Below are positions 23,622 to 62,243 of a DNA stretch of 64,000 nucleotides, piece by piece (position 1 is the first letter of the stretch; every line of letters starts with the position of its first letter). The position numbers and the translations under genes are program-made. The stretch is from positions 1 to 64,000 of the forward strand of contig JAFAHO010000262.1 of the NCBI GenBank assembly GCA_019237205.1. Direction: 5' to 3'. Below the pieces are notes generated by a model. The model was not told the DNA's origin, did not search any database, and was given only the letters and a program-made list of their open reading frames with translations. Source of the DNA: Hyphomicrobiales bacterium. GTDB lineage: Bacteria > Pseudomonadota > Alphaproteobacteria > Rhizobiales > Beijerinckiaceae.

Positions 23622-24907
23622 GACGCTCTCCCAATACTTGGTTGATTGCCGTCGGCGACGGCGCTTGCCGGAAAGGCCCGGCAGTCGGTTGAAGACCAAA
23701 AAAGATCGACGGTTTCGTTCGTCGCAGCCGCCATTTCCGGGCCGACCTTGACCGTCAAGACCTGGCCGTTCGCCAGACGCGCAAGCAGACGCTGATGGTC
23801 GCCGTGATAGATCCGGTCATCGACCGTCGCCTGGTGGGAATTGTCCGTCGGTCCTCCGCCGGCGGACAGGGCGATCCGCTCCGGGCGAATCGTCAGGCGC
23901 ACGGGACCGCCGGGCCGAATGTCGCCGATAGAAAGCGCAGTCGCCTTCAGTCCGCCCGGGAGCGCGACGAGGCACTGGCCGGCGCCGACGCTCTCGACGA
24001 CTCCGTCCAGCGCGTTGTTCTCGCCGATGAAGCTCGCCACAAACTCCGTCGCTGGTTCGTTATAAAGGCCGTGCGGCGTTCCGATCTGAACAACGGCCCC
24101 ATGATCGAATACCGCCACGCGGTCGGACATCGTCAGCGCTTCGGTCTGGTCGTGCGTCACACAGACCATCGTCACTCCCAGCATCTCGTGGATTTGCTTC
24201 AACTCGATCTGCATGTGCTCGCGCAGCTTCTTGTCGAGCGCGCCAAGCGGTTCATCCATCAGGACGAGCGTCGGCTCGAAGACCAAAGCGCGCGCCAGCG
24301 CGACGCGCTGCTGTTGCCCGCCTGAAAGCTGGGCCGGCTTGCGATGCTTGAATTGCTCCAGTCGCACCATTTCGAGCGCTCGCCTGACGCGAGGCGCGAT
24401 ATCGGCCTTGGGCGTCTTTCTCACCGAAAGCGGAAAAGCGACGTTCTGCTCGACGCTCATGTGAGGGAAGAGCGCGTAGTTCTGGAAAACCATGCCGATG
24501 TTGCGTTCGTAAGGCGGAAGCCGATCGACCGACTTGCCGGCGAGGGTGATCACGCCTTGGCTCGGCCTTTCGAAGCCAGCCAGCATATTGAGGGTCGTGG
24601 TCTTGCCGGAACCGGATGGCCCGAGGAATGTCAGGAATTCGCCGCGCCCGACCGTCAGACGCAGTCGTTTGACGGCCTGGAAGTCGCCATACATCTTCTC
24701 GACGTCGATGAATTCGACGAACGTCTCGTCCCGGCTTCTCGCGCTCCGGGTCGAGTTGTCTGATCGGGTCGCCGTCGCTGCACTCGCATCCCGGCCTTCA
24801 GCGGGCTCCGCCCGGTCGTCCAGAGGACTGCCGCGAGAAGGCGAGGCGAGGTTGGGACCTGCGGCGAGGCCGCTGCGAGCGGTTGAGTCCTGCGTGGTCG
24901 AGACCAA
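23618..24907 (-). CDS. ABC transporter ATP-binding protein (PotA-like)
   Basis: Walker A GPSGSGKTT, LSGGQQQRVALARALV, Walker B LVLMDEPLGALD, C-terminal TOBE-like region. Confidence 0.95.
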   Translation of the reverse strand: MVSTTQDSTARSGLAAGPNLASPSRGSPLDDRAEPAEGRDASAATATRSDNSTRSARSRDETFVEFIDVEKMYGDFQAVKRLRLTVGRGEFLTFLGPSGSGKTTTLNMLAGFERPSQGVITLAGKSVDRLPPYERNIGMVFQNYALFPHMSVEQNVAFPLSVRKTPKADIAPRVRRALEMVRLEQFKHRKPAQLSGGQQQRVALARALVFEPTLVLMDEPLGALDKKLREHMQIELKQIHEMLGVTMVCVTHDQTEALTMSDRVAVFDHGAVVQIGTPHGLYNEPATEFVASFIGENNALDGVVESVGAGQCLVALPGGLKATALSIGDIRPGGPVRLTIRPERIALSAGGGPTDNSHQATVDDRIYHGDHQRLLARLANGQVLTVKVGPEMAAATNETVDLFWSSTDCRAFPASAVADGNQPSIGRAS

Positions 24908-24959
24908 TCGAGCACCTCGAGTCCGCGTGTGGTTGTCAGATTTATATGATCAGATAACT

Positions 24960-25100
24960 CCTGATTGAATGATGCTATAGCCATACAAGTTAGCGCGTCA
25001 ACCCCCCTTGCGGAATTATTTTCGCTAAAAAATACCGGATAAGTTAGTGAGCCCATTGCAGCGGCGATCGGATAAGCATAATTGTATGGCGTTTTGGCCT
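24960..25100. promoter_or_regulatory. Candidate MocR/GntR operator region between divergent transcription units
   Basis: Inverted repeat GCCATACAA (24980-24988) / TTGTATGGC (25082-25090) plus repeated GGATAAG(T/C)-type half-sites in an AT-rich intergenic stretch. Confidence 0.45.
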
Positions 25101-25132
25101 GTGTTAAGAAGGCCTTGTCCGGAGCTCAAAAG

Positions 25133-26518
25133 ATGCTCGACAAGCTCGAACTGCCTGACACTGACCGACCGGTCTATCAGCGCCTAGCCGATGCAATCGG
25201 CGAACGAATTGCGCGGGGCGAGCTGGTTGAGGGCGAACGCCTCCCGCCGCACCGCGAAATCGCGCGCGCTCTGGGCATCAATGTGACGACCGTGACCCGA
25301 GCCTTCTCCGCGTTGCAACAGCGCGGCCTCGTCGAGGCGCGCCCGGGGCGGGGAACGCTGATCGCCACCCGCACGGCGGACGAAGGCTCATTCAAATCCG
25401 CCCCGACCGACGAGGCTGGACTGATCGATCTATCGGTCAATCGCCCGCCAACCTCAGCCTATCTCGAAGCGCTGGCGACGCTGCTGCCGCGTCTCTCGAA
25501 GGATCGGCGTTTCGGGGCCGCACGGGACTATCATCCGCCGGAGGGCCCGATCTGGGCGCGCGCCGCGGTTGCCGACTGGCTCAATGGCGTCGCCGGCGAT
25601 CGCGATCCTGGCCGTGTGGTATTGACCGACGGCGCCCAGCACGGCCTAGCCTGCGTGTTGCGCGCCTTGACCCAACGTGGCGACGTCATTCTGGCCGATT
25701 CGATTACCTATCAAGGCATCAACGCGCTCTGCCGATCGCAGGGGCTCGAGCTGCGCGGATTGTCCATCGACCGAGACGGGATGCGACCGGAGGCGTTCGA
25801 GGCGGCTTGCGCGAGTTCGCGTCCTCGCGCGGTTTTCCTCGTGCCCAGCCTGCATAATCCAACAACGGTCACCTTGAGCGAAGAGCGCCGTCGCGCGCTT
25901 GCGGCGATCGCCCGCCGTCACAACGTGCTGATCATCGAAGACGACGTCTATCGCCCGCTACTCGATTCCGAGATTCCGTCATTTGCGGCCCTGGAGCCTG
26001 AACTCACCATTCACGTGAGCTGTCTCTCGAAATGCATCGCGCCAGGCCTTCGCTATGGCTTCGTGGTCGCGCCGCGCGCCGTCCTGGGCAACATCGCCGC
26101 TGCGTTGCGCATCGATCGCTGGAGCATCAGCCCGCTCACTTCGCTTGTGGCGACCAACATGCTTGAAGATGGAACGGCGCGCCGGATCGTCGACCTCCAG
26201 CGCGAGGAGTTGCGCCGACGGCAAGCCATCCTGCGCGATGCGCTCGCCGGGTTCGATGTGCAGACCCAGGAGACGTCGCCGCACGCCTGGCTGCACTTGC
26301 CCGAGCCCTGGCGCGGCGCTGTTTTCGCCCGCGCTTGTCGTCAGCGGGGCGTTGGCGTGCTGCCCGCCGATGCTTTCGCGATTGGACGCGAGACTTCAGC
26401 TCACGCCGTGCGCATCAACATCAGCGCGGCGCCCTCGCTTGCAGACCTGAGGCAAGCGCTCTCGACGATGGCCGACCTCCTGCACGCCGGTCATATCGAA
26501 ATCTCCGGCGCGGTCTGA
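25133..26518 (+). CDS. MocR-type regulator (GntR wHTH fused to class-I aminotransferase)
   Basis: VYQRLADAIGERIARGELVEGERLPPHREIARALGINVTTVTRAFSALQQRGLVEARPGRGT plus a PLP domain ending SCLSKCIAPGLRYGFVVAP. Confidence 0.93.
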   Translation: MLDKLELPDTDRPVYQRLADAIGERIARGELVEGERLPPHREIARALGINVTTVTRAFSALQQRGLVEARPGRGTLIATRTADEGSFKSAPTDEAGLIDLSVNRPPTSAYLEALATLLPRLSKDRRFGAARDYHPPEGPIWARAAVADWLNGVAGDRDPGRVVLTDGAQHGLACVLRALTQRGDVILADSITYQGINALCRSQGLELRGLSIDRDGMRPEAFEAACASSRPRAVFLVPSLHNPTTVTLSEERRRALAAIARRHNVLIIEDDVYRPLLDSEIPSFAALEPELTIHVSCLSKCIAPGLRYGFVVAPRAVLGNIAAALRIDRWSISPLTSLVATNMLEDGTARRIVDLQREELRRRQAILRDALAGFDVQTQETSPHAWLHLPEPWRGAVFARACRQRGVGVLPADAFAIGRETSAHAVRINISAAPSLADLRQALSTMADLLHAGHIEISGAV

Positions 26519-59255: not shown

Positions 59256-60047
59256 ATGAGCCTGGCTGAACTTGTTCTTGACGCCGCGATCGCGCTGGTG
59301 AGCCTCGCCGTCGTCATGTCGGCAGGCTGGACGATCCAGCGGCAGACCGGGAACTCCGGCTGGATCGACGCGGTCTGGACTTTTGGCGTAGGCGCGACGG
59401 GGGTCGCGCTTTCGCTCGCGCCCGCCGGCGGCGCGTTGTGGCGGCGCGCCATCGTCGCCGCGCTTGCCGCCGCGTGGTCGATGCGGCTTGGCCTCCATAT
59501 CGTCAAGCGCACCATGAAGTCGGGCGGCGACCCGCGCTACGCCAGGATGATGGCGAACTGGGGCGAGAGAGCGCCCGCCTGCCTCTTTGCCTTTCTGCAG
59601 GCGCAGGCCGCCGTCGGCGCGCTGCTTGCGCTTGCAATCGCGCTTGCCGCGCATGCGCCGGGCGGGTCTCCGTGGCTGCAGGATGTGGTCGGCGCGCCGC
59701 TGATGGCGGTCGCGATCGTCGGCGAGGCCCTGGCCGATGCCGAGCTCGCGCGTTTCAAGGCCGATCCGGCGAACCGCGGCGCGATCTGCGATGTCGGCCT
59801 TTGGCGCCTGTCGCGTCATCCCAACTATGTTTGCGAATTTGCCGTCTGGCTCGCCGTCGCGATCATCGGCTTCGAGCCAAGCGCCGCTTCGACCTGGCTC
59901 GGGCTGCTTGCGCCGGCTATCATGTACTGGACATTGCGCTACGGCTCCGGCGTGCCGCCGCTAGAAGAGCACATGCAGCGCACCCGGCCGCACGACTTCG
60001 CCGCCTACGCCGCGCGCACCCCTGTGTTCTTTCCGACGCTTTGGTGA
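59256..60047 (+). CDS. DUF1295 (steroid 5-alpha-reductase-like) membrane protein
   Basis: GNSGWIDAVWTFGVG; LWRLSRHPNYVCEFAVWLAVAIIG; YGSGVPPLEEHM. Confidence 0.92.
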   Translation: MSLAELVLDAAIALVSLAVVMSAGWTIQRQTGNSGWIDAVWTFGVGATGVALSLAPAGGALWRRAIVAALAAAWSMRLGLHIVKRTMKSGGDPRYARMMANWGERAPACLFAFLQAQAAVGALLALAIALAAHAPGGSPWLQDVVGAPLMAVAIVGEALADAELARFKADPANRGAICDVGLWRLSRHPNYVCEFAVWLAVAIIGFEPSAASTWLGLLAPAIMYWTLRYGSGVPPLEEHMQRTRPHDFAAYAARTPVFFPTLW

Positions 60048-60070: not shown

Positions 60071-60628
60071 TTAATGACGAAGCATTTGCGCAGATAGCAT
60101 TGAGAATAACAACCCACATTGAATAAAAACTAGAATCAATGCTACCAATGAATAAGCAGTAATCCCGTTTTCAGAGTTAAAAAAAGGCAAATGACTATTC
60201 TCTGCAATTTCCCTCAAATTGAGTCTCGCCTTTACCGTGTCATGCTCCTCTCCCGTATCAGATTTAATCGACGTCTTACGAGCGGTTTGCTGACTGTATT
60301 CTGAGTACCATCCCCGCTCGTCTGCGTAAACTGCGCTAAATATCTGCGCGGATTTTGATCGACGGTGAAATAAGTACAGCATAAACACCTCAACAACAAA
60401 AACCAGCAGGGAAATTGCCGTAAGAGCAGCGGTTATTTCTAAGTCTATTGTAGTTATCGGCGAGTCGTGAGCGATAGGATAATGTATGATCATCACCAGC
60501 GCAATATTAATAAGAGGACTCAGTAAAAGGATAAAAGTAGCAGCGATTATATAAAGAGCGAGGCGCTGCAGGCTTTTCCTTATGTCTTCAATGTCTCTTA
60601 GATGAATATCATCCTTTGTATTATTCAT
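60071..60628 (-). CDS. Small integral membrane protein of unknown function, about three predicted TM helices
   Basis: Hydrophobic stretches LALYIIAATFILLLSPLINIALVMIIHY, ITAALTAISLLVFVVEVFMLYLF, YSLVALILVFIQCGLLFSML; AT-rich, Ile/Lys/Asn-rich codons unlike the surroundings. Confidence 0.7.
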   Translation of the reverse strand: MNNTKDDIHLRDIEDIRKSLQRLALYIIAATFILLLSPLINIALVMIIHYPIAHDSPITTIDLEITAALTAISLLVFVVEVFMLYLFHRRSKSAQIFSAVYADERGWYSEYSQQTARKTSIKSDTGEEHDTVKARLNLREIAENSHLPFFNSENGITAYSLVALILVFIQCGLLFSMLSAQMLRH

Positions 60629-60649
60629 GTGCGGACCTATTTAGATTAC

Positions 60650-61438
60650 TCACGCTTCAACCCGCGCAAAATTAGATAAAATCCGTGCGATCAGCGCCGC
60701 TTCATCACGGATTCTCATATTATCAGTATAATAGCCAGACATCCTAACAAGATCAAAGAATTGCTGGTCGTGAGAGGAAAATGGAAAGACGGACGTGTCA
60801 ATGTTCTTAGATTGCCCTAAGTTATCATAATAAGCACCTTCATCATAATACTGAAGGATGGGTGAATGCTCCGTTGGCGTCCACCAGAGGTCTGCCTTTG
60901 AGCAAACCGTGATTAACCAACGCGCGGGGCCGCCCGGCGCGCACAGGGTGTTTTTCCATTCGTCCAATAACAAGATTTCCTCATGCCTTCGATTTTCTAG
61001 AAATCGCTGTTTCACAGTATTATTCTTCGTAATAGCCCTGTTTGAAACAACGTTTCCTTCGTGATATCCATAAGATACCACGTTAATTATACCAAGGTTT
61101 GGCTCCCTCATCGCTTTACTAATGGATTGTCGCCGATGGATGGAAAACGGTTCAATAATCTGGCCTGGCGTCTCGATTATCTTCAGTTTCAATTTTCCTT
61201 TCAATTTTCCCTTTACCGATTCCGACACACGGCTCCGCATTTCTCTTGGGACGTACGGGACAAGACCGCGAAGTCGCCGACAAAAGGAGGTCTTTCCCGT
61301 TCCCGACGCCCCTAACAGAATAATAGTGTGCTTAGTGGGGCGGAGAAGGAATTCATTCATCTTCTCAAGGAGCCCCAATTCCTTTAGGAGAACTGCAGCA
61401 ACTTGTGCAACTTCTTTTGCAGTATTTGGGTCTACCAC
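60650..61438 (-). CDS. P-loop GTPase-domain protein of unknown function (GTG start)
   Basis: G1/Walker A IILLGASGTGKTSFCRRL, G3-like IIETPGQ, G4-like VCSKADLWW; AT-rich. Confidence 0.75.
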   Translation of the reverse strand: MVDPNTAKEVAQVAAVLLKELGLLEKMNEFLLRPTKHTIILLGASGTGKTSFCRRLRGLVPYVPREMRSRVSESVKGKLKGKLKLKIIETPGQIIEPFSIHRRQSISKAMREPNLGIINVVSYGYHEGNVVSNRAITKNNTVKQRFLENRRHEEILLLDEWKNTLCAPGGPARWLITVCSKADLWWTPTEHSPILQYYDEGAYYDNLGQSKNIDTSVFPFSSHDQQFFDLVRMSGYYTDNMRIRDEAALIARILSNFARVEA

Positions 61439-61760
61439 GGGCCTTCCCCAGACAAGTCAAATAATGGCAAATTGTTGTGATGACGCGTCATGAAAGGCAC
61501 AAACATTCTCGTCGCGTCGAAACAGGTTCGCCGACAAAGGCACACGCAAATATGTTCAGCGAGACGCTCCGAGTCAAATGTTCGCGGGGACCCGCGAAAT
61601 GTGCTTAGGCCAGAGCGAATTCTCTGGGCCACCTGCCCAGCCCGAAGGCCTCGACCGTCCGCATGGCGACCCCTGTCTGAAAGGTCCGGTCTCCGGCGGC
61701 CTCTTGCTCTTTCGTGAGCTCAGGCGGACTGTCACGATCGAACGCAAAAGGAGGCCGGCC

Positions 61761-62243
61761 ATGGCGCCGATCGCGTATCTTACCGTTCACGGACAGAGGC
61801 AGGGGGACATCAAGGGCGGCGCTACTGAAAAGAGACGGGAAGGCTCGATCCCGCTGATTTCAGTCGCCTACGAGGTCGACGCGCCCGTCGACCCGGCGAC
61901 CGGCCACGTAACCGGCAAGCGCATTCATAAGCCGGTCACAATCATCAAGGTCATCGATCAGGCGTCGCCGAAACTGCTCGAGGCGCTCGTCACAAACGAG
62001 GTCCTGACCAGCGTCAAGATCGAGTTCTGGCGACCGGCCCCCGAGGCCGCCGCGCCCTATTTCATCATCGCGCTGACGAACGCGCTCGTGACCAACGCGG
62101 CCCTCTCGTCCTCGAGCGGAAGCCACGCGCAGGCGCCTGACGCCCACGAGCTCGAGGAGATTGAATTCACTTACCAAAAGATCACGTGGACCTACCCGGA
62201 GAACGGCGACGAGGCTCAGGACGATTGGGCCTCTCAATCGTGA
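61761..62243 (+). CDS. hcp: Hcp family type VI secretion tube/effector protein
   Basis: AYLTVHGQRQGDIKGGATEKRREGSIPLISVAYEVDAPVDPATGHVTGKRIHKPVTIIKVIDQASPKLLEALVTNEVLTSVKIEFWRP; strong AAGGAGG SD. Confidence 0.92.
   Translation: MAPIAYLTVHGQRQGDIKGGATEKRREGSIPLISVAYEVDAPVDPATGHVTGKRIHKPVTIIKVIDQASPKLLEALVTNEVLTSVKIEFWRPAPEAAAPYFIIALTNALVTNAALSSSSGSHAQAPDAHELEEIEFTYQKITWTYPENGDEAQDDWASQS

What the first reader, a model, noticed from the sequence alone, without database searches (positions are those of the whole stretch)
60071..61438. AT-rich island encoding a P-loop GTPase plus a small multi-TM protein
Seen: composition drops sharply to AT-rich between the GC-rich DUF1295 gene and hcp. The two same-strand genes use ATA/AAA/AAT-rich codons. 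The GTPase has GASGTGKT, ETPGQ and SKADLW motifs; the partner has about three hydrophobic helices and a soluble linker. Inference: horizontally acquired two-gene module, possibly a membrane-acting defence or stress module, since NTPase-plus-TM-effector pairs are a recurrent defence architecture. No known system is recognised.
Basis: partly seen in the sequence, partly recalled or inferred. Interest (0 to 1): 0.78.

Follow-up and report, generated by a model that had tools for sequence, protein, structure and literature searches.

The report
Mobile two-gene GTPase plus membrane-protein module
This is a rare pair of genes, a GTP-binding switch protein and a small membrane protein, that travels together on plasmids, prophages and foreign-looking chromosomal islands of very different bacteria; no catalogued family covers it, and the best guess, untested, is that it defends its host or its carrier element by acting on the cell membrane.

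Summary
Window 60071-61438 (-) is a 44% GC island in 65% GC DNA, encoding a 262-aa GTPase (G1 GASGTGKT, G3 ETPGQ, G4 SKADLWW) and, 21 bp downstream, a 185-aa protein with three membrane helices. No Pfam, NCBIfam, PADLOC or PHROG model covers either window protein. I found nine more GTPases of the family: Rhodococcus, Hymenobacter and Georgenia plasmids, a Streptomyces megaplasmid, a Mu-like phage contig, an integrase-adjacent prophage slot, and three proteobacterial genomes. All ten are linked by pairwise BLAST or a profile match (E 8e-20). In 9 of 10 the next same-strand gene (-43 to +21 bp) encodes a small membrane protein; the Georgenia copy is solitary. Partner type (3TM or 2TM) follows the GTPase tree. 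The module is AT-richer than its flanks in 9 of 10 loci and absent from ten congeners. So the 'horizontally acquired two-gene module' is supported. 'Defence' fits the mobile-element cargo positions but nothing here tests it. The best mechanism is a GTP switch controlling a membrane effector (inferred). DO-GTPase and SLATT_5 membership were tested and not met. Structure models are low confidence. Verdict: a real, uncatalogued, MGE-borne GTPase/membrane pair of unknown trigger.

The parts
60650..61438 (-). GTPase gene, 262 aa, GTG start
   Evidence: nine homologues
60071..60628 (-). Small membrane protein gene, 185 aa, three predicted TM helices, 21 bp downstream of the GTPase gene
   Evidence: homologous partner in Rhodococcus pDK4
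61289..61312 (-). G1 / Walker A motif GASGTGKT (residues 43-50)
   Evidence: GxxxxGK[TS] in all ten homologues
61160..61174 (-). G3-like motif ETPGQ (residues 89-93); PG invariant, Q in 8 of 10, the usual Asp is Glu here and Val in most 2TM-type members
   Evidence: alignment
61058..61072 (-). Family-specific motif after strand 4: YGYHE (residues 123-127), [YWF]G[YHF] in most members
60881..60901 (-). G4 motif SKADLWW (residues 180-186), [NST]KxDL in all members, implies guanine specificity
60773..60778 (-). G5-like SS (residues 221-222) at the end of the predicted strand 6
60485..60541 (-). TM helix 1 of the partner (residues 30-48)
   Evidence: hydropathy; low-confidence model
60368..60424 (-). 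TM helix 2 of the partner (residues 69-87)
   Evidence: hydropathy
60164..60190 (-). LPFFNSENG motif just before TM3 (LPIVPGRYG in Rhodococcus)
60095..60151 (-). TM helix 3 of the partner (residues 160-178)
   Evidence: hydropathy

Best explanation
A horizontally acquired accessory module that spreads with mobile elements. SHOWN: the GTPase and a small membrane protein form a conserved two-gene unit (9 of 10 loci), often with overlapping genes, across Pseudomonadota, Actinomycetota and Bacteroidota, on plasmids and phage/prophage contigs as well as in chromosomes. INFERRED: the GTPase is a cytosolic GTP/GDP switch (Ras/Arf/SR-beta-like G domain) that binds the cytosolic helices of its membrane partner; the partner oligomerises in the inner membrane; an infection- or entry-related cue flips the GTPase and this opens or clusters the partner, damaging or closing the membrane, so that the cell arrests or a competing element is excluded. 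In function it would resemble RexAB-type regulator plus membrane-effector immunity or superinfection exclusion.
For: Conserved adjacency in 9 of 10 loci, gaps -43 to +21 bp. GTPase sub-groups A and B are homologous over 167 columns, 99.2%, E 8e-20; pairwise links. G1/G3/G4 motifs are kept, MMR_HSR1 is over the gathering score in two members, and Foldseek's best matches are GTPases. The partner type follows the GTPase tree (3TM clade 93/88), as expected if the two proteins work together. MGE cargo positions: between tail-completion and head-protease genes of a Mu-like phage; next to a tyrosine integrase in a 39.6-kb UViG; near TraM/MobF genes of a Rhodococcus plasmid; Hymenobacter plasmid. Module AT-richer than flanks in 9 of 10. 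Absent from congeners that keep the flanking sigma-ChrR-DUF1295 cluster. No catalytic domain recognised in the partner, consistent with a membrane effector.
Against: No direct evidence of anti-phage or exclusion activity. None of the loci inspected lies in a recognised defence island and no PADLOC model matches specifically. The window copy lies among ordinary chromosomal genes. One GTPase (Georgenia) has no partner. The two partner types are not detectably related to each other, so the 'effector' could be two different things. Predicted models are low confidence (pLDDT 43 and 53), so contact between the proteins is untested. No match in 50,697 phage records.
Confidence: 0.45

Rival explanations
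1. Element-fitness factor rather than defence: the pair serves the carrying plasmid or prophage, for example as conjugative entry exclusion, a toxin-antitoxin-like addiction pair (membrane toxin held by the GTPase), or lysogenic conversion.
For: Carried by plasmids and phages; the Rhodococcus copy lies near TraM/MobF genes; the integrase-adjacent and Mu morphogenesis slots are typical for such morons too.
Against: Four copies are in chromosomal settings with no element seen next to them (window, G097, G700, G200). No antitoxin-like or lipoprotein features. A conserved GTPase is unusual for entry exclusion or addiction (general knowledge).
Confidence: 0.25
2. Membrane-organising or trafficking GTPase: an SR-beta/Arf-like G protein recruited to the membrane by a dedicated anchor protein, working in envelope maintenance or protein targeting, moved around as a niche gene.
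For: Weak SRPRB profile matches (E 0.002-0.09); Foldseek lists Arl, Gtr and SR-beta G domains; the TM partner could be an anchor.
Against: Sporadic distribution (4 family genomes found in about a thousand proteobacterial genomes searched) and mobile-element carriage do not fit housekeeping. SRPRB scores are below the cut-off. The model is low confidence.
Confidence: 0.15
3. A divergent DO-GTPase or SLATT conflict system (Kaur et al. 2020, PMC7159879): TRAFAC GTPase with 2TM effector.
For: Same general plan: TRAFAC-like GTPase with TM components in MGE-like settings; those systems can include SLATT 2TM proteins.
Against: PF19993 not matched in the window genome; profile comparison with a real DO-GTPase pair aligns only 22 P-loop columns, 34%. 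No GAP1-like gene in the neighbourhoods read. No SLATT model hit; hhalign with SLATT_5 under 1%.
Confidence: 0.07
4. Part of a T6SS locus: the adjacent hcp and the pair form an effector/immunity unit.
For: hcp (61761-62243 +) is divergent from the GTPase gene and close to it; a TipC immunity model matches the partner very weakly (E 0.09).
Against: No other copy of the pair was seen beside an hcp. hcp has native GC3 (0.81) while the pair has 0.40-0.47. A GTPase plus TM layout is not an effector/immunity layout.
Confidence: 0.03

Closest known systems
TRAFAC-class GTPases (MMR_HSR1 PF01926; Ras/Arf/SR-beta-like G domains)
   Same: P-loop G1, xxPGQ at G3, [NST]KxD at G4, SS/CS at G5, strand/helix order of the low-confidence model; PF01926 over gathering score in the Rhodococcus and G200 members.
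   Different: Window protein itself is below the cut-off. The G3 Asp is Glu in the window protein and Val in most 2TM-type members. Family-specific [YWF]GY and KxDLWW...YY blocks, and an N-terminal helix, are not part of those families.
DO-GTPase (PF19993) / GAP1 conflict systems (PMC7159879)
   Same: Sporadic GTPases in operons with TM components; a predicted conflict role.
   Different: No profile match beyond the P-loop, single GTPase, no GAP1 seen, no zinc ribbons, G3 reads PGQ and not xAGE.
SLATT two-TM predicted pore effectors (SLATT_5 PF18160)
   Same: Small protein with a TM hairpin followed by cytosolic helices, next to a nucleotide-binding partner.
   Different: No sequence or profile similarity to SLATT_5; no Pfam SLATT model matched any partner.
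RexAB-type phage exclusion (compared from general knowledge)
   Same: Prophage-borne two-gene unit of a soluble regulator and a small multi-TM protein.
   Different: RexA is not a GTPase and no sequence relation is claimed; analogy of plan only.

Membership tests
TRAFAC-class P-loop GTPase | G1 GxxxxGK[ST] | tested here: met
   All ten sequences
TRAFAC-class P-loop GTPase | G3 DxxG with Mg-binding Asp | tested here: inconclusive
   xxPG[QEN] in all, but the Asp is D in 2, E in the window protein, I or V in the rest
TRAFAC-class P-loop GTPase | G4 [NT]KxD for guanine | tested here: met
   [NST]KxDL in all ten
TRAFAC-class P-loop GTPase | Profile match over curated cut-off | tested here: inconclusive
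   Window protein 18.8 bits (cut-off 21.9); Rhodococcus 28.4 and G200 27.4 bits over it
DO-GTPase (PF19993) | Profile match over the whole domain | tested here: not met
   No window-genome match; profile-profile 22 columns only, 34%
DO-GTPase (PF19993) | Associated GAP1 gene | tested here: inconclusive
   No GAP1-like neighbour seen among the ORFs and annotations read; neighbours were not systematically scanned with GAP1 models
SLATT | SLATT profile match | tested here: not met
   hmmscan negative for the partner proteins; hhalign against SLATT_5 under 1%; other SLATT subfamilies tested by hmmscan only
GPN-loop GTPase (PF03029) | GPN tripeptide and PF03029 match | tested here: not met
   14.3 bits against cut-off 27; no GPN in the window protein (sequence)
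Known PADLOC defence system | PADLOC model match | tested here: not met
   Only weak, mostly P-loop partial matches
Anti-phage defence system (functional) | Protects against phage | not testable with these tools
   Needs an experiment

The most novel reading that the evidence does not exclude
A new class of mobile bacterial immunity or exclusion system in which a small G protein with an unusual G3 motif (Asp lost in most members) acts as the infection switch that gates one of two unrelated types of small membrane effector.
Probability: 0.25. Interest if true: 0.85.

Novelty: new variant of a known kind. Interest (0 to 1): 0.62.

Why it matters
A two-gene unit kept together at 20-40% identity across three phyla, on plasmids and phages, is under selection for a joint function, yet no family database searched here names it. 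If it is immune or exclusion machinery it would give bacteria a Ras/Arf-like GTP switch gating a membrane effector, a parallel to eukaryotic immune GTPases, and it is small enough to test directly. If not, it is still a defined, testable family of moron genes.

Tried and rejected
The genome-contig scan with the single protein found nothing and the second scan recovered only the G097 locus plus two RsgA genes, rejected as off-target. Weak HMM matches in many genomes (E 1e-5 to 3e-8, partial, mostly in longer frames) were read as other TRAFAC or P-loop GTPases and not counted; this was judged from match length and score, not gene by gene. Midasin as top PDB hit is a summed multi-P-loop artefact. 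DO-GTPase, SLATT_5, GPN and T6SS readings were tested and dropped. Rfam was not searched. Fold search on the TM model gave nothing. An imperfect 20-nt inverted repeat around the module (59809-59828 / 61471-61490, 85%) is weak, lies partly inside the DUF1295 gene and was not used as evidence. Literature searches for such a pair found no description in the open-access library; subscription papers and preprints are not covered.

Full report
OBSERVATION. The window carries two same-strand genes at 61438..60650 (GTPase, 262 aa, GTG) and 60628..60071 (185 aa), 21 bp apart. They occupy the lowest-GC kilobase-scale stretch in the 64 kb window: 0.437 against 0.667 in the flanks, next lowest stretch 0.589. 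GC3 is 0.47 and 0.40 against 0.78-0.89 in neighbouring genes, including hcp (0.81). So the island is the two genes and not hcp. The partner has three hydrophobic helices with the linker between helices 2 and 3.

NO KNOWN FAMILY. The GTPase gives only sub-threshold P-loop matches in Pfam, NCBIfam, PADLOC and PHROGs (MMR_HSR1, 18.8 bits against 21.9), and the partner gives nothing significant. No solved structure is a clear sequence relative.

HOMOLOGUES. The best relative is on plasmid pDK4 and its copies in Rhodococcus sp. DK17/DK176/DK180 (29.5% over 97%, E 4e-24). Its next gene is annotated as 129 aa, but an upstream start 4 bp after the GTPase gene gives 182 aa and it is homologous to the window partner around LREx..S.LP....G..AY (E 0.001 for one comparison, 1.7e-4 in the set). 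Iterating gave: G097, an alphaproteobacterial MAG of the same order; G700, same class, followed by two partner-like genes; a Streptomyces sp. BHT-5-2 megaplasmid; G200, another class; Georgenia and Hymenobacter plasmids; a Mu-like phage contig and a 39.6-kb UViG. All ten GTPases are connected by pairwise BLAST, and the two sub-groups match by profile over 167 columns, 99.2%, E 8e-20.

THE PAIR. In nine of ten loci the next gene on the same strand encodes a small membrane protein, with gaps of 21, 4, -7, -43, -11, 6, 4, -8 and -4 bp. Only the Georgenia copy lacks one. Partners fall into a 3TM type with an LPxxxxG-like block before the last helix (window, Rhodococcus, G700 twice; the last helix is weaker by hydropathy in G700) and a 2TM type, most of which end in a conserved basic helix. 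The types are not detectably related, yet type follows the GTPase tree: the 3TM carriers form one group with support 93/88. Deep branches are long, so this tree is a guide only. Two partner types tied to two GTPase clades are what one expects if the proteins act together.

MOBILITY. Three smaller plasmids and one megaplasmid carry it. In the phage contig it lies between a tail-completion protein and the head maturation protease of a Mu-like morphogenesis block, after an ion-channel ORF. In the UViG it is followed directly by a tyrosine integrase (PF00589, 8.4e-10). The module is AT-richer than its flanks in nine of ten loci. In the window's genus, the sigma-ChrR-DUF1295 cluster is kept in G004 and G008 (DUF1295 55-62% identical) and sigma-ChrR in G005, without the pair and without hcp in the stretches read. 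Across the proteobacterial genomes searched (about a thousand), only four members were found; the search scores a limited number of candidates per genome, so this is a lower bound.

MECHANISM. The motif set G1, PGQ at G3, [NST]KxD at G4 and SS/CS at G5, the predicted strand order and the Foldseek list, which consists of G domains, make a GTP-binding switch the sound reading even though the model is poor (pLDDT 43). The G3 Asp is missing in most 2TM-type members (VIPGQ), so slow or activator-dependent hydrolysis is possible (inference). The partner model is a helical hairpin with a long extension (pLDDT 53). I infer that the GTPase controls the oligomerisation or opening of the partner. The cue is unknown. 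Defence or exclusion is the likeliest use because of the cargo positions, but this is inference and I put it near even odds.

COMPARISON. DO-GTPase systems (PMC7159879, read) share the plan but not the family: only 22 P-loop columns align with a real DO-GTPase pair. SLATT models do not match and SLATT_5 proteins do not align. PADLOC has nothing specific. Ten searches of the open-access library found no description.

VERDICT. Observation confirmed; 'horizontally acquired two-gene module' supported; 'defence' plausible and untested. It is an uncatalogued family within a known architectural theme (NTPase plus membrane partner on mobile elements).

Noticed in passing
window 61761-62243 (+): Lone hcp/tssD gene next to the island, with native composition but not found by tblastn in the congeneric stretches read.
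   Followed up: partly
L070 3635-4384: Ion-channel ORF (PF07885, 9e-10) overlapping the tail-completion gene of a Mu-like phage and preceding the GTPase pair; perhaps a second cargo gene.
   Followed up: partly
L003 6758-7306: Rhodococcus pDK4 partner gene is annotated from an internal start (129 aa); the full frame of 182 aa starts 4 bp after the GTPase gene and restores TM1.
   Followed up: yes
L018 6219-6536: A further 105-aa TM ORF overlaps the end of the Streptomyces partner gene; that locus may be a three-gene version.
   Followed up: no
L077 7050-7745: Gene of 231 aa without any Pfam match beside the G200 pair, which lies in a low-GC stretch between housekeeping genes.
   Followed up: partly
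window 59809-59828 and 61471-61490: Imperfect 20-nt inverted repeat (85%) around the module; may be chance.
   Followed up: partly
L071 504-3140: A DO-GTPase pair in G034, same family as the window's organism, sits directly downstream of an IS-like transposase ORF.
   Followed up: no
window about 24901-25200: The only other 300-bp stretch below 52% GC in the window.
   Followed up: no
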